Source of the DNA: Pseudomonadota bacterium
GTDB lineage: Bacteria; Pseudomonadota; Gammaproteobacteria; Burkholderiales; Burkholderiaceae_C
Length of the DNA: 32,773 bases
Assembly (NCBI GenBank): GCA_018241185.1
Contig: JAFEEH010000247.1
Span: 1-32,773 of the forward strand
Direction: 5' to 3'
Part shown: positions 18,699-25,348 of the stretch, in pieces
Position numbering within the stretch: the stretch's first letter is position 1
Layout of the letters: each line of letters starts with the position of its first letter
Position numbers and translations under genes: made by a program
The notes under the pieces: generated by a model
The model's database searches: none
What the model was told of the DNA's origin: nothing
What the model saw: the letters and a program-made list of their open reading frames with translations, nothing else

Positions 18699-19505
18699 TC
18701 AGGGCGGCGTCATGCCGCGGGGCCGGACGCTGACCTCCGAACTGGTGATCGCCTGCAGCCCGGCCGGCGTTTGCACGCGCAGCTCGCCGCCCGGGCCCAC
18801 GCCCTCGCACAGGCCGGCTTGGCCATCGCTGAGTACCACTTCACGCCCGCGCAGCGCATCCCGCGCGTCGAAGCGCGGCAGCACCGGTGCGAAGCCCTGC
18901 GCCGCGAAGCGCAGCACCTCGGCCAGCAGCGGCGGTGCCAGCGCCGCCAATGCCTGCGGCGGCGTCGCGTCGGGCTGCCACTGCCGCAGCCAGGCCGGTG
19001 GCGTGCGCATGTCGTCGCCTGCGCGCGCACCGACGTTCACCCCGATGCCGATGACCACCTGGCGGGCCGCGGTGCCCGGCGACGAAGCGGTCTCGATCAG
19101 GATGCCGGCCAGCTTGCGGTCCGCCACCCACAGGTCGTTGGGCCACTTGAGCTTCACGCCGGCGGCGCCATCGGGGTCGAGCGACTCGGCCACGCTCACG
19201 CCGACGGCCAGCGACAGGCCCGACCAGTCCTGCGGTGCCAGCGGCAGCCCGAGCGAGAAGGTCAGCGACGCGGCCGGGTCGGCCGCAGCCTGGGCGCTCT
19301 GCCAGTCCCGGCCGAGTCGACCGCGCCCCGCTGTCTGGCGCTCGGCCACCAGCAGCACGGGACGGGCGTCACCCGCGCGGGCACGGCGCATGAGCTCGGT
19401 GTTGGTGGAATCGATGGCCTCGACGGCTTCCACGGCGATCGCTGGCTCGTGCACCGCCAGCGCACGGCGCAGCGCATCGACGGTGGCCGCGGTCCAGGCG
19501 CTCAA
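18699..19505 (-). CDS. birA: Biotin-[acetyl-CoA carboxylase] ligase, no DNA-binding domain
   Basis: This 268-residue enzyme activates biotin with ATP and attaches it to the carboxyl carrier protein of acetyl-CoA carboxylase and similar enzymes. DSTNTELMRRA, AERQTAGRGRLGRDW (biotinyl-AMP loop), KLKWPNDLWV and RKLAGILIE are all present, and a small C-terminal SH3-like domain follows. The N-terminal winged helix of E. coli BirA is missing, so it is a ligase only and not a repressor. The best start is TTG at 19505, directly after the TGA of the SET gene and with no in-frame alternative close by; translation is probably by re-initiation. Confidence 0.93.
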   Translation of the reverse strand: MSAWTAATVDALRRALAVHEPAIAVEAVEAIDSTNTELMRRARAGDARPVLLVAERQTAGRGRLGRDWQSAQAAADPAASLTFSLGLPLAPQDWSGLSLAVGVSVAESLDPDGAAGVKLKWPNDLWVADRKLAGILIETASSPGTAARQVVIGIGVNVGARAGDDMRTPPAWLRQWQPDATPPQALAALAPPLLAEVLRFAAQGFAPVLPRFDARDALRGREVVLSDGQAGLCEGVGPGGELRVQTPAGLQAITSSEVSVRPRGMTPP

Positions 19506-20126
19506 TCAACCACCCTTGCGTTTCCCGGACTTCTTTTTCTTCTTGTTCTTGTCCTTCTTCGGCTTCGCGGCCTTGCCCTTGTCCTTGTCCTTGTCCTTGC
19601 TCTTCTTCTTTTTGTTCTTCTTGCCCGGCACGTCGTCGTCCTTGGGCGAAAGCAGTGTGCCGCGGCAGTTGGCCGAGCCGCACCAGCAGGGAAAGTCCGC
19701 CAGCAGTTCCGGCGTGTAGGGCTCGTCGATCACGAGGCCGTAGTCGTAGTTCAGTTCCTCGCCGGCCGCGATGTCTCGCAGCGCCTTGATGAAGATGCGG
19801 CCGCCCTCTTCGTCGGCCTCGCAGTTCGGGTCGCAGGAATGGTTGATCCACCGCGCGGCGTTGCCCTTCACGCCGCCATCGATCACGCGCTCGTCATCGA
19901 TGTGGAAGTAGAAGGTGTGGTTGGGCTGGGCCGGGTCGTGCGGGTGGCGGCGCAGCGCCTCTTCCCAGTCGATCACCTCGCCCTTGTATTCGATCAGCCG
20001 CTCGTCCTTGGGGATGTCCTGCACGGCGAACACCCCGTTGCCGTGGACCCCCGAGCGCCGCGTCTGGATGCGGCGCCCCCCCGCGGGCGGCGAAGTCGAT
20101 GGCGAGGAAGGGGATTTGGAGGGCAT
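19506..20126 (-). CDS. SET-domain protein-lysine methyltransferase with Lys-rich tail
   Basis: This is a 206-residue protein. Residues about 20-132 form a compact SET domain: SGVHGNGVFAVQDIPKDERL, the cofactor and pseudoknot motif NHSCDPNC at 95-102, and GEELNYDYG at 122-130 with the catalytic Tyr. A post-SET zinc cluster follows (CWCGSANCRG, 147-156). The last 40 residues are mostly Lys with Asp/Ser, a strongly basic tail that should bind nucleic acid. SET enzymes methylate lysine using S-adenosylmethionine. The gene is divergent from topB across an alternating purine-pyrimidine tract and coupled to birA. The ATG at 20126 has a weak ribosome site; an in-frame ATG at 20159 lies inside the tract. 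Substrate is unknown. Confidence 0.85.
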   Translation of the reverse strand: MPSKSPSSPSTSPPAGGRRIQTRRSGVHGNGVFAVQDIPKDERLIEYKGEVIDWEEALRRHPHDPAQPNHTFYFHIDDERVIDGGVKGNAARWINHSCDPNCEADEEGGRIFIKALRDIAAGEELNYDYGLVIDEPYTPELLADFPCWCGSANCRGTLLSPKDDDVPGKKNKKKKSKDKDKDKGKAAKPKKDKNKKKKKSGKRKGG

Positions 20127-20147
20127 CGCCGAGTTCTGATAGTTTGA

Positions 20148-20200
20148 ATATGCACACATGCGCGCGTGTACACACGTACGTACGTGCGTGTGCACGCGCG
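20148..20200. promoter_or_regulatory. 53-bp alternating purine-pyrimidine (Z-DNA-prone) tract with imperfect palindrome
   Basis: Every step from 20148 to 20200 alternates purine and pyrimidine without a break, mostly CG and CA/TG steps. Within it 20162-20199 is a near-perfect 38-base palindrome whose only mismatches would be G-T pairs, centred on ACGTACGTACGT. Such DNA flips to left-handed form or extrudes a cruciform under negative supercoiling. It lies 22 bases from the SET ATG and 103 from the topB ATG. Confidence 0.9.
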
Positions 20201-20218
20201 AGAGGCGCAGAGTATAGA
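20189..20218 (+). promoter_or_regulatory. topB: Candidate topB promoter partly inside the alternating tract
   Basis: TATAGA at 20213-20218 is a fair -10. With an 18-base spacer the -35 would be TGTGCA at 20189-20194, inside the alternating tract, so its activity could depend on supercoiling. The implied leader of about 80 bases contains two GC hairpins: CCGGC/GCCGG (20226-20240) and CCGGCC/GGCCGG (20263-20280). Confidence 0.4.
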
Positions 20219-20303
20219 GAGCCCCCCGGCGTCCTGCCGGCGATGCCCGCCCCCACGAGGGGCCGGCCCGCGCAGGCCGGGGCGAACTGTTGAGAGACCC
20301 CAG

Positions 20304-23243
20304 ATGACGAAGACTTTGGTGATTGCGGAGAAGCCCTCGGTGGCACAGGACATCGTGCGCGCGCTCACGCCGGTGGCCGGCAAGTTCGACAAGCACGACG
20401 ACCATTTCGAGAACGAGCAGTACGTGGTGACCAGTGCCGTGGGCCACCTGGTGGAGATCCAGGCCCCCGAGCAGTACGACGTGAAACGCGGCAAGTGGAG
20501 CTTCGCGCACCTCCCGGTCATCCCGCCGCACTTCGACCTCAAGCCGGTGGACAAGACCAAGACGCGCCTGAATGCCGTCGTCAAGCAGGCCAAGCGCAAG
20601 GACGTGACGCAGCTGGTCAACGCCTGCGACGCGGGCCGCGAGGGCGAGCTGATCTTCCGACTGATCGAGCAGTACGCCGGCGGCAACAAGCCGCTGGGCA
20701 AGCCGGTCCGGCGCCTGTGGCTGCAGTCGATGACGCCGCAGGCGATCCGCGACGGCTTCGACTCGCTGCGCAGCGAGCAGCAGATGCAGGGCCTGGCCGA
20801 CGCCGCGCGCTCGCGCTCCGAGGCCGACTGGCTGGTGGGCATCAACGGCACGCGGGCGATGACGGCCTTCAACTCGCGCGACGGTGGCTTCTTCCTCACC
20901 ACGGTGGGCCGGGTGCAGACGCCCACCCTGTCGGTGGTGGTGGAGCGCGAGGAACAGATCCGCAAGTTCGTGAGCCGCGACTACTGGGAAATCCACGGCA
21001 TCTTCGGCGCCGAGGCCGGCCAATACCCCGGCAAGTATTTCGACCCGGCCTGGAAGAAGGCCAGCGCGCCGCTGCTCCCGAACGGCGAAGCCGACCCCGA
21101 GCAGCGCGCCGACCGGGTGTGGAGCGAAGCCGAGGCGCGCGCCATCGCTGATGCCGCCCGCGGCCAGCATGCGACCGTGACGGAGGAAAGCAAGCCGACG
21201 ACGCAGGCTTCGCCGCTGCTGTTCGACCTCACCTCGCTGCAGCGTGAGGCCAACAGCCGCTTCGGCTTCTCGGCCAAGACCACGCTGGCGCTCGCGCAGT
21301 CGCTGTACGAGCGCCACAAGGCCCTGACCTACCCCCGGACCGACTCGCGCGCCCTGCCCGAGGACTACCTGCCCGTGGTCAAGCAGACGATGGGCATGCT
21401 GGCCACCAGCGGCATGAAGCACCTGGCGCCCTTCGCGCAGCAGGCCATCGACGGCAACTACGTCAAGCCGAGCAAGCGCATCTTCGACAACGCCAAGGTG
21501 TCGGACCACTTCGCGATCATCCCCACCCTGCAGGCACCCAGCGGCCTGTCGGATGCGGAGCAGCGCCTGTACGACTTCGTGGTGCGGCGCTTCCTGTCGG
21601 TGTTCTTTCCCAGCGCCGAATTCCAGGTCACGACCCGCATCTCGACGGTCGAGCGCGATGCGAAGAAGTACGCCTTCCGCTCCGACGGCAAGGTGCTGGT
21701 CAAGCCGGGCTGGATGGCCATCTACGGCAAGGAAGCCGTGACCGAAGACGACGAGAAGGACGGCAAGAACCTGGTGGCCGTGAAGCCGGGCGAGCGGGTG
21801 AAGGTCGATTCGGTGGAGCCCAAGGGCCTGAAGACGCGCCCGCCGGCCCGCTATTCCGAAGCGACGCTGCTGGGCGCCATGGAAGGCGCCGGCAAGACCA
21901 TCGACGACGACGAACTGCGCGAAGCCATGCAGGAGAAGGGCCTGGGCACGCCGGCCACGCGTGCGGCCATCATCGAAGGGCTGCTCAACGAGAAGTACAT
22001 GCTGCGCGAGGGCCGCGAACTGATCCCGACCGCCAAGGCCTTCCAGCTCATGACGCTGCTGCGCGGCCTGGGCGTGGAGGAGCTCTCCAAGGCCGAACTG
22101 ACGGGCGAGTGGGAATACAAGCTCGCGCAGATGGAGAAGGGCCAGCTCAGCCGCGACGCCTTCATGCGCGAGATCGCGGCCATGACCGAGCACATCGTCA
22201 AGAAGGCCAAGGAGTACGACCGCGACACGGTGCCGGGCGACTACGCGACGCTCGAAGCGCCCTGCCCCAACTGCGGCGGCATCGTGCGCGAGAATTACCG
22301 CCGTTATGCCTGCACCGGCAAATCGGGCAACGGCAGCGACGCCTGCGGCTTTTCCTTCACCAAGTCCCCGGCAGGCCGCACCTTCGAGATCGCCGAGGCC
22401 GAGCAGCTGGTGCGCGACAAGCACATCGGCCCGCTGGAAGGCTTCCGCTCCAAGGCCGGTTGGCCCTTCGTGGCCGAGATCCGGCTCGCCTACAGCGACG
22501 AGGACAGCAACTGGAAGCTCGAGTTCGACTTCGGCGACGACGGCAAGGACCCGGCCGAGACCGGCGAGATCATCGACTTCAGCGGTCAGGAGAGCCTGGG
22601 GGCATGCCCCAAGTGCAAGGGCCGCGTGTTCGAGTTCGGCGCCAACTACATCTGCGAGCACTCGGTGCCGACGCCACAGCAGGCGGTGCCCAGTTGCGAC
22701 TTCAAGACCGGCAAGGTCATCCTGCAGCAGCCGGTGGAGCCCGAGCAGGTGCGCAAGCTGCTGGCCGAAGGCAAGACCGACCTGCTCGACAAGTTCGTCA
22801 GCATGCGCACGCGGCGCACTTTCAAGGCTTTTTTGGTGTGGAACGCCGAGGAAGGCAAGGTGACCTTCGAGTTCGAGCCGCGCACCAGCAAGTTCCCCCC
22901 GCGCAAGACCTTCGCGGCCAAGGCGGCGCCGGCGAAGAAGACCGCGGCGGCCAAGAAGGCACCGGCGGCCAAGAAGGCAGCTGCGCCCAAGGCACCCCGC
23001 AAAGCCGCAGCCGGCACGGGCCTCACGCCCAGCGCCGAACTGGCGGCCGTGATCGGCACCGAGCCGGTGCTGCGCACCGAGGCGACCAAGAAGCTGTGGG
23101 ACTACATCAAGGCCCAGGGGCTGCAGGACCCGGCGGACAAGCGCAGCATCCGCGCCGACGCCAAGCTGCAGGCGGTGTTCGGCAAGCCCAGCGCGACCAT
23201 GTTCGAACTGGCCGGCCTGCTGGGCAAGCACCTGGCCAAGTGA
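20304..23243 (+). CDS. topB: DNA topoisomerase III with H1-like Lys/Ala tail and C-terminal SWIB domain
   Basis: This 979-residue type IA topoisomerase nicks one strand and passes another, favouring decatenation. The Toprim start TLVIAEKPSVAQDIVRAL and CDAGREGELIF mark it as TopB rather than TopA. The active-site Tyr343 is in LTYPRTDSRALPEDY, followed by GLGTPATRAAIIEGLL. Two Cys-rich modules follow (from about 653, CPNCGG, and about 768, CPKCKG). Residues about 871-905 are a Lys/Ala/Pro repeat resembling histone H1 tails, and 906-979 (LTPSAELAAVIG, then KKLWDYIKAQGLQDP, then FELAGLLGKHL) fit a SWIB/MDM2 domain. E. coli TopB, about 650 residues, lacks these additions. GAGAG precedes the ATG by seven bases. 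Confidence 0.93.
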   Translation: MTKTLVIAEKPSVAQDIVRALTPVAGKFDKHDDHFENEQYVVTSAVGHLVEIQAPEQYDVKRGKWSFAHLPVIPPHFDLKPVDKTKTRLNAVVKQAKRKDVTQLVNACDAGREGELIFRLIEQYAGGNKPLGKPVRRLWLQSMTPQAIRDGFDSLRSEQQMQGLADAARSRSEADWLVGINGTRAMTAFNSRDGGFFLTTVGRVQTPTLSVVVEREEQIRKFVSRDYWEIHGIFGAEAGQYPGKYFDPAWKKASAPLLPNGEADPEQRADRVWSEAEARAIADAARGQHATVTEESKPTTQASPLLFDLTSLQREANSRFGFSAKTTLALAQSLYERHKALTYPRTDSRALPEDYLPVVKQTMGMLATSGMKHLAPFAQQAIDGNYVKPSKRIFDNAKVSDHFAIIPTLQAPSGLSDAEQRLYDFVVRRFLSVFFPSAEFQVTTRISTVERDAKKYAFRSDGKVLVKPGWMAIYGKEAVTEDDEKDGKNLVAVKPGERVKVDSVEPKGLKTRPPARYSEATLLGAMEGAGKTIDDDELREAMQEKGLGTPATRAAIIEGLLNEKYMLREGRELIPTAKAFQLMTLLRGLGVEELSKAELTGEWEYKLAQMEKGQLSRDAFMREIAAMTEHIVKKAKEYDRDTVPGDYATLEAPCPNCGGIVRENYRRYACTGKSGNGSDACGFSFTKSPAGRTFEIAEAEQLVRDKHIGPLEGFRSKAGWPFVAEIRLAYSDEDSNWKLEFDFGDDGKDPAETGEIIDFSGQESLGACPKCKGRVFEFGANYICEHSVPTPQQAVPSCDFKTGKVILQQPVEPEQVRKLLAEGKTDLLDKFVSMRTRRTFKAFLVWNAEEGKVTFEFEPRTSKFPPRKTFAAKAAPAKKTAAAKKAPAAKKAAAPKAPRKAAAGTGLTPSAELAAVIGTEPVLRTEATKKLWDYIKAQGLQDPADKRSIRADAKLQAVFGKPSATMFELAGLLGKHLAK

Positions 23244-23274: not shown

Positions 23275-23868
23275 TCAGTGGACGGCGGGCCGGCGCGGCG
23301 GCGGCGGGATGCGGTCCGTCACCTCGATCCAGCACGCGAACAGCGGGTGGCCATCCACGATCACCGGTGGCGCCGCGCGGTGGGCGCGGAAGCCCTCGCG
23401 GCGCAGGAGGCGTTCGATGCCCAGCGGCGACACGGTGATCATGCGCTGCACCCCGTGGGCGCGCGCCACCGCGATGGCCTCTTCGAGCAGCCCCACCGCC
23501 ACGGGGGAGGAGAACTGCCCCATCGCGCCCTGGCCGGTGGCGGTGAAGTCGACGGCCGCGAAGCGCGACAGCTCCCACACCAGGGGATCGCAGGGCGGCA
23601 TCGCGCCCCCGAGGAGTTGCGGAAAGACCTCGCTCAGGAGGTAGGGACTGGTGGTCGGCAGCAGGCGTGCCGTGCCCACGATCTCCTGCTTCGCGTCGCG
23701 CGCGGCGAGATACAGAGTGCCGGCGTGGTCGAACTGGTCGCGCTCGCGACCCGGGGGCGTGTCGAGTTCCCAACCCAGCATCTCGACGAAGACCTTGTAG
23801 CGGTATTGCTCGACGCTGTGGAGCAACTGGGCACTGAGTTGATGGGGGCGGCCGGAAAGTACTTCCAT
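23275..23868 (-). CDS. Acyl-homoserine-lactone synthase (LuxI family)
   Basis: This 197-residue enzyme makes an N-acyl-homoserine lactone from acyl-ACP and S-adenosylmethionine. All the conserved residues are present: Arg22, Phe26 and Trp32 (YRYKVFVEMLGWEL); Glu41, Asp43 and Asp46 (RERDQFD); Arg67 in TARLLPT; and Glu98 and Arg101 in VWELSRFA. The sequence is close to CepI in layout and length. ATG at 23868 is chosen over ATG at 23898 because the lux-box promoter would start transcription near 23890, downstream of the earlier ATG, and because family members begin here. It follows rsaM on the same strand but has its own lux box. Confidence 0.93.
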   Translation of the reverse strand: MEVLSGRPHQLSAQLLHSVEQYRYKVFVEMLGWELDTPPGRERDQFDHAGTLYLAARDAKQEIVGTARLLPTTSPYLLSEVFPQLLGGAMPPCDPLVWELSRFAAVDFTATGQGAMGQFSSPVAVGLLEEAIAVARAHGVQRMITVSPLGIERLLRREGFRAHRAAPPVIVDGHPLFACWIEVTDRIPPPPRRPAVH

Positions 23869-23896
23869 GTGATTAATCCCGAGGTTGTATCGGGCC

Positions 23897-23943
23897 ATTT
23901 CAGCGCCCGGCCGAGCGCAGCGGAACTATCAGTTCTTGTAGGT
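23897..23943 (-). promoter_or_regulatory. lux box and promoter of luxI
   Basis: The dyad AACTATCAGTTCTTGTAGGT (+ strand reading, 23924-23943) matches 15 of 20 bases of the Pseudomonas lasB OP1 box as I recall it. It overlaps the last base of the rsaM stop. On the - strand a -10-like TGAAAT (23902-23897) follows after 21 bases, the spacing expected when a LuxR-type activator replaces the -35. Transcription would start near 23890. Confidence 0.7.
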
Positions 23944-24335
23944 CATGCCACCATGGGCGCGTTGCACGCCGCACGCCAGGCGGGTCGCTGCCAGTCGATG
24001 GCATCGATGAATTTGGCAAGGGCTTCGAGGCTCTCTTCCATCGGCAGCGGCTCCTGCGCGTCCGAGACCAGCAGCAAGTTGGTGCGCGGCAGCCCCTGGC
24101 GCACGATGGCGCCGCCCGCCGGCGTGCTCTGCCAGGCCCAGTCCCAACCGATGCTCAGCGCCGGTTCGGCCGGGCTGACCCACTCGGTGTAGCCGGACAG
24201 TGCAGCGGCGCTGCCGCAGTGCGCATCGGCGTGGACCGGCTCGTCATCCATGCCCGACACCAGGTGCTGCAGGGGAATGCGGGCAAGCCTGCGCCGGGGC
24301 AGGTGCAGATAGCCATCGGAAGAGAAGACGGGCAT
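23943..24335 (-). CDS. rsaM: RsaM-like quorum-sensing regulator (DUF4902)
   Basis: This is a 130-residue protein between luxI and luxR. It shows GYTEWVS, LSIGWDWAWQS and RTNLLLVSDAQEPL, the pattern I recall for RsaM/DUF4902 proteins that sit between cepI and cepR in Burkholderia and damp acyl-homoserine-lactone production. RsaM has no known DNA-binding motif and none is seen here. AAGGAG lies six bases before the ATG, the best ribosome site in the locus. Order and orientation (luxR +, rsaM -, luxI -) match the Burkholderia cep locus. Identification is by pattern and position. Confidence 0.8.
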   Translation of the reverse strand: MPVFSSDGYLHLPRRRLARIPLQHLVSGMDDEPVHADAHCGSAAALSGYTEWVSPAEPALSIGWDWAWQSTPAGGAIVRQGLPRTNLLLVSDAQEPLPMEESLEALAKFIDAIDWQRPAWRAACNAPMVA

Positions 24336-24634
24336 GGAGGACTCCTTGCAAAAGGGTTCGACAAAGCCAGGAGCTGACGTCCACGCCAGCTTGAAGGGTG
24401 CGGTGGCGCGAATCAATCGATCGCATGCATCATTCGGCGCAAGCGCGGCAAAACGCACATGAAGATGCCGCAACGTCGGCTTCATGCTCCGATCTCCGAC
24501 AGAACACCCGTGCCATTTCATGTAAATTGGTTGTTTCAGGGGGCCATCCGCTGCCGCTGTCGCGGCGCACCATCCGGATCGATTCATGCCCTGCCTTCAG
24601 GCCTCGGCCATGTTTTCTTGCGAGTGGGTGCTAC
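24336..24634. promoter_or_regulatory. rsaM/luxR divergent region with a CTG-N10-CAG dyad
   Basis: This 299-base gap holds a 20-base dyad at 24372-24391 (AGCTGACGTCCACGCCAGCT, 8 of 10 positions symmetric) of the CTG-N10-CAG form seen in lux boxes. It is a poorer match to the other two boxes, and its spacing does not fit activation of rsaM. ATCAAT at 24412-24417 could be a -10 for luxR with a leader of about 210 bases. The rest shows no gene. Confidence 0.4.
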
Positions 24635-25348
24635 GTGCCGCCCTCCACTGACCACCTGCTCAGCATGCTGGACCGCGCCACGAGCGAGCAGGCGGTGTTC
24701 GACGCCCTGCGCGCCGAAACGCGGCGGCTGGGTTTTGAACACTGCGCGTACGGCCTGCGGCTGGCGGTGCCGGTGTCCAACCCCAAGGTCATCACCCTCA
24801 ACGACTACCCGATGTCGTGGCAGGCGCGCTACCTCGAGGCGGGCTATTTGCACATCGATCCCAGCGTGCGGCATGGCCGGCAGAGCCAGAGCCCGCTCGT
24901 CTGGACGGACGCGATGTTCGCTTCCGCACGGCAGATGTGGGACGAGGCGCGAGACCACGGCCTGCGCGTGGGCTGGGCGCAATCCAGCCTCGACGGCTTC
25001 GGCGTCGGCGGCATGCTCACCCTGTCGCGTTCGCACGAGCCCCTGACCGAGCGCGAGCTGCTCGACAAGGAAAGCGCCATGCGATGGCTGGTACAGGCGG
25101 CCCACCTGTCGCTGTCGCGGCTCATGAAGCCGCGCTACGCGGTCCAGCCGGAGACGCCGCTCACGCCCCGCGAGCTCGAGGTGCTCAAGTGGACGGCAGA
25201 CGGCAAGACGGCACCCGACATCGGCGACATCCTGGGCATTTCGGTGCCTACGGTGAACTTTCACATCAAGAACGTGGTGCAGAAATTGAAGGCTCCCAAC
25301 AAGACCGCGGCCGTGGTCCAGGCCCTGATGTCGGGCCTGCTCAACTGA
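24635..25348 (+). CDS. LuxR-family acyl-homoserine-lactone receptor/regulator
   Basis: This 237-residue regulator has an N-terminal autoinducer-binding domain with all the key residues: Trp62, Tyr66, Asp75, Pro76, Trp90 and Gly113 (SWQARY, IDPS, LVWTD, RVGWAQ). The C-terminal LuxR helix-turn-helix is LTPRELEVLKWTADGKTAPD, then ILGISVPTVNFHIKNVVQKL. Having all six ligand residues means it should bind a lactone, so it is not an orphan of altered type. GTG at 24635 is chosen because it gives the same length before GFE as in CepR; ATG at 24665 is the alternative, and the longer frame from 24398 is not protein-like. It should bind the lux boxes at 23924 and 25442. Confidence 0.92.
   Translation: MPPSTDHLLSMLDRATSEQAVFDALRAETRRLGFEHCAYGLRLAVPVSNPKVITLNDYPMSWQARYLEAGYLHIDPSVRHGRQSQSPLVWTDAMFASARQMWDEARDHGLRVGWAQSSLDGFGVGGMLTLSRSHEPLTERELLDKESAMRWLVQAAHLSLSRLMKPRYAVQPETPLTPRELEVLKWTADGKTAPDIGDILGISVPTVNFHIKNVVQKLKAPNKTAAVVQALMSGLLN

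What the first reader, a model, noticed from the sequence alone, without database searches (positions are those of the whole stretch)
19506..23243. Chromatin-like gene pair: SET lysine methyltransferase facing a TopB-H1 tail-SWIB fusion
A SET enzyme with its own Lys-rich tail is divergent from a topoisomerase III that ends in a Lys/Ala H1-like stretch and a SWIB domain. SET, SWIB and H1-like tails are chromatin parts in eukaryotes. Chlamydiae also have SET proteins acting on histone-like proteins and a SWIB domain on a topoisomerase. I infer that the SET enzyme may methylate the TopB tail or another histone-like protein and so tune DNA binding.
Basis: partly seen in the sequence, partly recalled or inferred. 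Interest (0 to 1): 0.82.

Follow-up and report, generated by a model that had tools for sequence, protein, structure and literature searches.

The report
Z-DNA-prone promoter of topoisomerase/methyltransferase pair
Two chromatin-like bacterial genes, a SET methyltransferase and a topoisomerase III with a histone-H1-like tail and SWIB domain, sit back to back across a family of bacteria, and the DNA between them carries an unusual stretch of strictly alternating purines and pyrimidines that could flip to left-handed DNA under torsion and so sense it.

Summary
A SET-domain enzyme (19506-20126, minus strand) is divergent from a topoisomerase III (20304-23243) that ends in a Lys/Ala tail and a SWIB domain. 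In 80 named relatives topB is divergent from SET in 80, and birA follows SET in 79.
TopB-SWIB is a curated family and SET-SWIB co-occurrence is in print, so the chromatin idea is not new. It gains support: SWIB in 41 of 50 SET genomes against 33 of 150 without. The Lys-rich SET tail is not conserved (24 of 80). A stand-alone SWIB protein with a PAKKA tail is at least as good a methylation target.
The stronger finding lies between the genes: 53 nt of perfect purine-pyrimidine alternation (20148-20200), the only run of 29 nt or more in the 5.34 Mb assembly. Runs of 22 nt or more occur in 51 of 80 relatives there and nowhere in 1.29 Mb around. Letters change, alternation is kept. Hairpin, reading frame and GC do not explain it. 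Two -10-like boxes face each other across it.
I read it as a torsion-responsive, Z-DNA-prone element; unproven.

The parts
20148..20200 (.). 53-nt perfect alternating purine-pyrimidine tract (Z-DNA-prone) between SET and topB
20211..20216 (-). -10-like box TATACT (TACAAT in 65 of 97 distinct regions) pointing towards SET, 10 nt from the tract
   Evidence: no full sigma-70 match in a consensus scan
20137..20145 (+). extended -10-like box TGNTANNNT pointing towards topB, 2 nt from the tract
   Evidence: no full sigma-70 match in a consensus scan
19506..20126 (-). SET-domain protein lysine methyltransferase with Lys-rich C-terminal tail (206 aa)
20304..23243 (+). topB, topoisomerase III with H1-like tail and SWIB domain (979 aa)
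22878..23018 (+). Lys/Ala-rich H1-like tail of TopB (about residues 859-905)
23025..23234 (+). SWIB/MDM2 domain of TopB
18699..19505 (-). birA-type biotin protein ligase directly downstream of SET; part of the conserved block

Best explanation
Shown: a divergent gene pair, a SET lysine methyltransferase (followed by birA) and a topoisomerase III carrying an H1-like tail plus SWIB, is kept across one bacterial family (the window's; the named relatives are mostly Comamonadaceae-type). Its short shared intergenic region holds a tract whose purine-pyrimidine alternation is conserved while its letters change, bracketed in most loci by two face-to-face -10-like boxes. Inferred: both transcripts start at the tract's edges and run through it, so after initiation the tract lies between two diverging RNA polymerases, where negative supercoiling is highest. 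When torsion builds up, the tract turns to left-handed Z-DNA, soaking up several turns and changing RNA polymerase access at both promoters. Topoisomerase III output and SET/birA output are thereby tied to local torsion. Inferred and weaker: SET methylates lysines in the H1-like tails of SWIB proteins (stand-alone SWIB protein and TopB), tuning their DNA binding.
For: The 53-nt tract is the only run of 29 nt or more in the own assembly. Relatives: 22 nt or more in 51 of 80 loci inside 14.6 kb of intergenic DNA, against 0 in 1.287 Mb of flank. 16 nt or more upstream of the family's topB in 100 of 120 loci, 92 of 112 after removing repeats, and in 0 of 26 topB genes of other families. Transitions:transversions 174:89 between the boxes against 143:228 beside them, 22 disjoint pairs, Fisher p 9e-12. 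Not more palindromic and no better RNA folders than shuffles that keep the alternation, 62 tracts. No clear reading-frame signal, 75 loci. With published B-Z energies the intergenic site is the best Z former of its locus in 65 of 80 loci. Boxes: 72 of 97 and 66 of 97 against 1.8 and 3.2 in letter shuffles. SET-SWIB: 41 of 50 against 33 of 150.
Against: Predicted onset (-0.039) is only slightly easier than that of the next site in the window, a 14-nt CG-rich run (-0.040); what is special is length, not threshold. In 15 of 80 loci another site is the better Z former or the intergenic region holds none of the best six. Six of 80 loci have no run of 14 nt or more. A CATGTGTGCA block is enriched at the SET side (16 of 69 distinct tracts, shuffles 0.28), which looks like a protein or start-site element in part of the family. 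The consensus scan found no full sigma-70 promoter in 19900-20450. 43 of 105 distinct regions lacked both anchor boxes as I defined them and were left out of the transition test. Tract and SET can part: of eight SET-less genomes with a readable topB upstream, tracts of 17-21 nt persist in four (L148-L151), are absent in three (L145, L146, L153) and broken in one (L147). No methylation or transcription data exist here.
Confidence: 0.42

Rival explanations
1. The tract is an array of binding sites for a protein (a regulator, or a nucleoid protein such as the SWIB proteins themselves) that reads alternating steps or a short motif; Z-DNA never forms.
For: CATGTGTGCA and TGTGTGCATA blocks are strongly enriched over alternation-keeping shuffles; GCGCAC and CGCGCA mildly so.
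Against: Much of each tract differs in letters between relatives while alternation is kept; the longest run varies from 16 to 53 nt among loci that have one.
Confidence: 0.3
2. Only the gene pair matters: an ordinary conserved neighbourhood in which a SET enzyme modifies H1-like SWIB proteins; the tract is a by-product of how overlapping start regions evolve.
For: SET-SWIB co-occurrence; published statements that SWIB and SET co-occur and that a chlamydial SET enzyme methylated Hc1.
Against: A by-product should appear at other promoters; no run of 22 nt or more occurs in 1.287 Mb of flank, and no other of 29 nt or more in the own assembly.
Confidence: 0.15
3. The tract is a mutational product (slippage or biased mutation in GC-rich DNA) without function.
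For: It is rich in CG and CA steps; longer tracts tend slightly to higher-GC loci (rho 0.23, p 0.013).
Against: Tracts of 30-43 nt occur in loci of 54-58% GC; confined to one site; excess of transitions against the neighbouring DNA.
Confidence: 0.08
4. SET is an injected effector acting on host histones.
For: Its only NCBIfam match is the LegAS4/AnkI effector family; a Burkholderia thailandensis SET protein methylated free H3, per a table in PMC3980110.
Against: Score 42 against a cut-off of 550; SET matches in 187 of 200 genomes of the family, and beside topB and birA in the named loci; Lys-rich tail mostly absent.
Confidence: 0.05

Closest known systems
DNA topoisomerase III family PRK14724 (NCBIfam NF011313)
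   Same: 988-position curated family matched end to end, 1928 bits against a cut-off of 1088
   Different: No difference seen in the protein; a protein model says nothing of the SET partner or the shared alternating start region
Chlamydial TopA-SWIB and the SET/Hc1 system (PMC12445093 and PMC6426960, passages seen; PMC3980110, abstract and first part of section 5 seen)
   Same: Topoisomerase with a C-terminal SWIB domain, a stand-alone SWIB protein, a SET enzyme and H1-like sequence in one genome
   Different: Here the fusion is to topoisomerase III, not I; the H1-like tail is part of the SWIB proteins; SET and topB are adjacent and share a Z-DNA-prone start region
Z-DNA-prone sequences near transcription starts (PMC3024258, passages seen)
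   Same: Alternating tract near transcription starts, predicted to flip under negative torsion
   Different: A natural bacterial site kept across a family at one locus, beside a topoisomerase gene; the bacterial Z-DNA mentioned in the passages seen is at inserted sequences

Membership tests
SET-domain protein lysine methyltransferase | Full SET domain by profile | tested here: met
   PF00856, profile 1-105 of 105, E 1.4e-25
SET-domain protein lysine methyltransferase | NHxC motif, catalytic Tyr, post-SET zinc Cys (roles recalled) | tested here: met
   Invariant in 19 sequences
SET-domain protein lysine methyltransferase | Lysine methyl transfer to a substrate | not testable with these tools
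   Needs biochemistry
LegAS4/AnkI effector (NF043024) | Score above the family cut-off | tested here: not met
   42.3 bits against 550
Topoisomerase III PRK14724 | Equivalog score above cut-off over full length | tested here: met
   1928 against 1088, 4-981 of the query
Chlamydial topoisomerase I/SWI fusion (NF004966) | Score above cut-off | tested here: not met
   186.7 against 868
SWIB/MDM2 domain | Profile match over the cut-off | tested here: met
   84.8 bits against 25
Histone H1-like tail | Lys/Ala/Pro-rich low-complexity tail | tested here: met
   Median 54 aa, 22% Lys, 32% Ala over the 59 rows with SWIB (one row, L125, cut in the wrong place)
Histone H1-like tail | DNA binding changed by modification | not testable with these tools
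   Needs biochemistry
Z-DNA-forming element | Long purine-pyrimidine alternation with low B-Z energy | tested here: met
   53 nt; onset -0.039 for a 5 kb domain, close to that of short CG runs
Z-DNA-forming element | Adopts Z form in the cell | not testable with these tools
   Needs probing in cells

The most novel reading that the evidence does not exclude
A natural, family-wide bacterial Z-DNA switch: selection maintains an alternating tract between opposed start sites of a topoisomerase III gene and a SET/birA operon, so that torsion itself, through the B-to-Z transition, sets the dose of an enzyme acting on DNA topology and of a methyltransferase for H1-like SWIB proteins.
Probability: 0.35. 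Interest if true: 0.88.

Novelty: new variant of a known kind. Interest (0 to 1): 0.7.

Why it matters
Whether Z-DNA regulates genes in bacteria is an old question with few natural candidate sites (general knowledge, recalled). Here is a single, conserved site, the longest of its kind in its genome, next to the gene for a topoisomerase, in organisms that can be grown, so that the question becomes a promoter-swap experiment. The gene pair also gives a bacterial setting outside Chlamydiae in which SET, SWIB and H1-like tails may work together on the bacterium's own nucleoid.

Tried and rejected
Hairpin or cruciform: palindrome z -0.34 and RNA folding z 0.01 against shuffles that keep the alternation, 62 tracts of 24 nt or more. 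Coding leader or longer topB start: frames open from tract to topB in 36, 23 and 33 of 75 loci (the first is topB's own frame), distances spread evenly modulo 3. GC effect: rho 0.23; tracts of 30-43 nt at 54-58% GC. Tract as a feature of all topB genes: 0 of 26 in other families. Tract as a feature of all SET genes: in 26 SET loci examined (L004, L010-L034, about 1.5 kb on each side where the contig allows) only three runs of 16-17 nt, in two loci. SET-topB as an accident of old synteny: partly possible. From the coordinates, where both genes were located, SET lies within about 20 kb of topB in family f6 (4 of 4 genomes, next door and convergent), f4 (2 of 2), f10 (1 of 1), f8 (1 of 2) and f32 (2 of 3, only if their single contigs are circles), and on other contigs or far away in the rest. 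The stretches fetched (eight of the ten were read) show the order for f4, f6, f8 and f10; my ORF filter showed neither gene in the f32 stretches. So closeness is older than the divergent arrangement and is weak evidence for a joint function.

Dropped rows and limits: one search used only equal-length pairs with 60-99% flank identity among 62 anchored regions out of 105 distinct; one out-of-register pair (L097/L127) supplies 28 of its 89 transversions and was kept. G333 counts as SET-less but shows a SET start at its contig edge. Of 9 TopB frames without SWIB, three are short or odd (L087, L108, L142) and six look true. One search looks only 300 nt upstream, so it misses tracts in a few loci with wide gaps, and it counts some genomes twice because they came from two collections; one search recounts without repeats (92 of 112). 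Two pairs among the 80 named loci (L106/L110, L079/L090) have the same topB-proximal sequence. The pattern sees every run of 29 nt or more, but of runs of exactly 28 nt only those that start with a purine.

Structure prediction and fold search were not used; the profile matches were judged sufficient.
Full report
What is there. The window belongs to a 5.34 Mb genome in 269 contigs. The closest named relative in the genome collection scan is Xenophilus aerolatus, 97% identical in the SET core (records very near the window may be left out there). The SET gene (19506-20126, minus strand) codes for 206 residues: a full SET domain (PF00856, E 1.4e-25), a post-SET cysteine cluster and a 56-residue tail with 23 lysines. 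The nearest solved structures by sequence are MLL/KMT2, Set1 and NSD-type histone methyltransferases. The active-site and zinc positions are invariant in 19 sequences (their roles are recalled knowledge). topB (20304-23243) codes for 979 residues with Toprim, topoisomerase, Toprim_Crpt and SWIB domains, and a Lys/Ala-rich stretch before the SWIB. It matches the curated family PRK14724 over its whole length (1928 bits, cut-off 1088).

Conservation of the pair. A search of 200 genomes of the order found a SET match in 50; of 200 genomes of the family, in 187. In 80 named genome loci topB is divergent from SET in 80, and birA follows SET on the same strand in 79; in the last one (L107) the contig is only 3 kb. 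Of 33 unnamed family loci (L006-L009, L035-L063; some are the same genomes as named ones), topB was found in 32, on the strand opposite to SET; in the other the SET gene lies at the contig's edge. SWIB is present in 59 of 68 TopB frames that end within the locus. The SET tail has 10 or more lysines in only 24 of 80.

Chromatin side. Over 200 genomes of the order SWIB is present in 41 of 50 with SET and 33 of 150 without (p 4e-14). Counting each of 51 families once (150 genomes) it is 15 of 17 against 5 of 34 (p 5e-7), and it holds among 92 genomes of 3 Mb or more, 33 of 35 against 18 of 57. That SWIB and SET often co-occur is in print: PMC6426960 (passages seen) says so and cites Aravind, Abhiman and Iyer 2011 (not read). 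A chlamydial SET enzyme is reported to methylate Hc1 while another did not (PMC3980110, abstract and first part of section 5 seen). The own genome has a second SWIB gene (contig C32) coding for a small protein whose N-terminus is a run of PAKKA-type repeats. By sequence this is a purer H1-like protein than the TopB tail; the TopB C-terminus looks like the same kind of module fused on. If SET works on the bacterium's own proteins, this protein is at least as likely a substrate as TopB. That step is inference. A search for SET domain, topoisomerase III and SWIB together found no paper in the open library.

The tract. Between the two start codons lie 53 nt of perfect purine-pyrimidine alternation (20148-20200). 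In the own assembly no other place has 29 nt or more: all 13 forward matches of a 28-letter pattern are steps along this one tract. In the 80 named loci, runs of 22 nt or more occur in 51 intergenic regions (14.6 kb in all) and nowhere in 1.287 Mb of surrounding DNA; runs of 16 nt or more occur in 74 loci there, against 25 runs outside. Upstream of the family's topB (300 nt), 100 of 120 loci have 16 nt or more, 92 of 112 after removing repeated sequences, against 0 of 26 topB genes of other families.

Conserved alternation. The letters differ between relatives. Between two flanking boxes used as anchors, in 22 disjoint pairs, transitions outnumber transversions 174 to 89; beside the anchors the ratio is 143 to 228 (Fisher p 9e-12). 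Transitions keep alternation, transversions break it. The tracts are not more palindromic and do not fold better as RNA than shuffles that keep purine and pyrimidine positions. Towards topB the own frame is open in 36 of 75 loci, the two others in 23 and 33, so there is no clear sign of coding. Length depends only weakly on GC (rho 0.23). I take this as selection on alternation; that is an inference from these tests.

Anatomy of the promoter region. In 97 distinct regions with a tract of 16 nt or more, a TACAAT/TATACT-type box pointing to SET lies on the topB side in 72 (letter shuffles 1.8), 7 to 11 nt from the tract in 64 of these. A TGNTANNNT box pointing to topB lies on the SET side in 66 (shuffles 3.2), 2 or 12 nt away in 44 of these. 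If these are the -10 elements, both transcripts begin at or near the tract's edges and run through it. A strict sigma-70 scan of 19900-20450 found nothing, so the promoters are inferred from conservation only. One block, CATGTGTGCA, is enriched at the SET side (16 of 69 distinct tracts), which may be a start-site or protein element.

Energetics. With the B-Z energies printed in PMC3024258 (passages seen; the stiffness constant and the junction twist were set by me from memory), a simple two-state model gives an onset at superhelical density -0.039 in a 5 kb domain for the window's tract (its best 40 bp) and -0.040 for the next best site, a 14-nt CG-rich run. A (CG)16 benchmark came out at -0.033, against -0.031 measured for the paper's Sequence 1, a 16-dinucleotide insert that I take to be (CG)16. 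The intergenic site is the best of its locus in 65 of 80 loci. The threshold is therefore ordinary. The capacity is not: by the same formula 40-53 bp relieve about eight to ten turns, a 14-bp site about three.

Reading. The best account is a torsion-responsive, Z-DNA-prone element between two opposed start sites, tying topoisomerase III and SET/birA expression to local supercoiling. Alternation, its rarity elsewhere, conservation and location are shown. Z-DNA formation, the promoters and the feedback are inferred. The main rival is a protein that reads the alternating DNA. Tract and SET can part: of eight SET-less genomes with a readable topB upstream, four keep 17-21 nt, three have none and one has a broken tract, so the element belongs to the topB/birA junction as much as to SET. 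Searches for Z-DNA with topoisomerase, promoter, supercoiling or bacterial terms showed no paper on such a site, judged by the titles and abstracts listed: 15 of 16, 15 of 98, 0 of 0 and 8 of 272, in an open-access library only. So novelty is not established beyond that.

Noticed in passing
23275-25348: Beyond topB lies a quorum-sensing-like set: an acyl-homoserine-lactone synthase (PF00765, E 3.8e-22), a DUF4902 protein and, by eye, a LuxR-type regulator.
   Followed up: partly
L001 (own genome contig C32, 1352-1567 minus): Stand-alone SWIB protein with a long PAKKA-repeat N-terminus, an H1-like SWIB protein separate from TopB.
   Followed up: partly
L004 (own genome contig C170, 18791-19096 plus): A second, shorter SET gene without a Lys-rich tail; no topB or birA match within the 3.3 kb locus.
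   Followed up: no
L082, L085, L086, L092, L095: In these loci (three titled Polaromonas, one Brevundimonas MAG, one Comamonadaceae MAG) about 650-720 nt separate topB from SET, and in nine regions with such a wide gap the tract lies 551-580 nt from topB, that is on the SET side.
   Followed up: no
L206, L209 and L025, L027, L031: In family f6 SET is convergent with, not divergent from, a topB whose frame holds no SWIB (the SWIB matches of these genomes lie on other contigs), beside dprA- and def-like genes (named by eye).
   Followed up: partly
L203: In one genome of family f10 genes that look by eye like a biotin operon follow topB, while in the window's family birA sits in the topB block.
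   Followed up: no
L081: Hylemonella: the tract is nearly intact but broken by CC in its middle.
   Followed up: no
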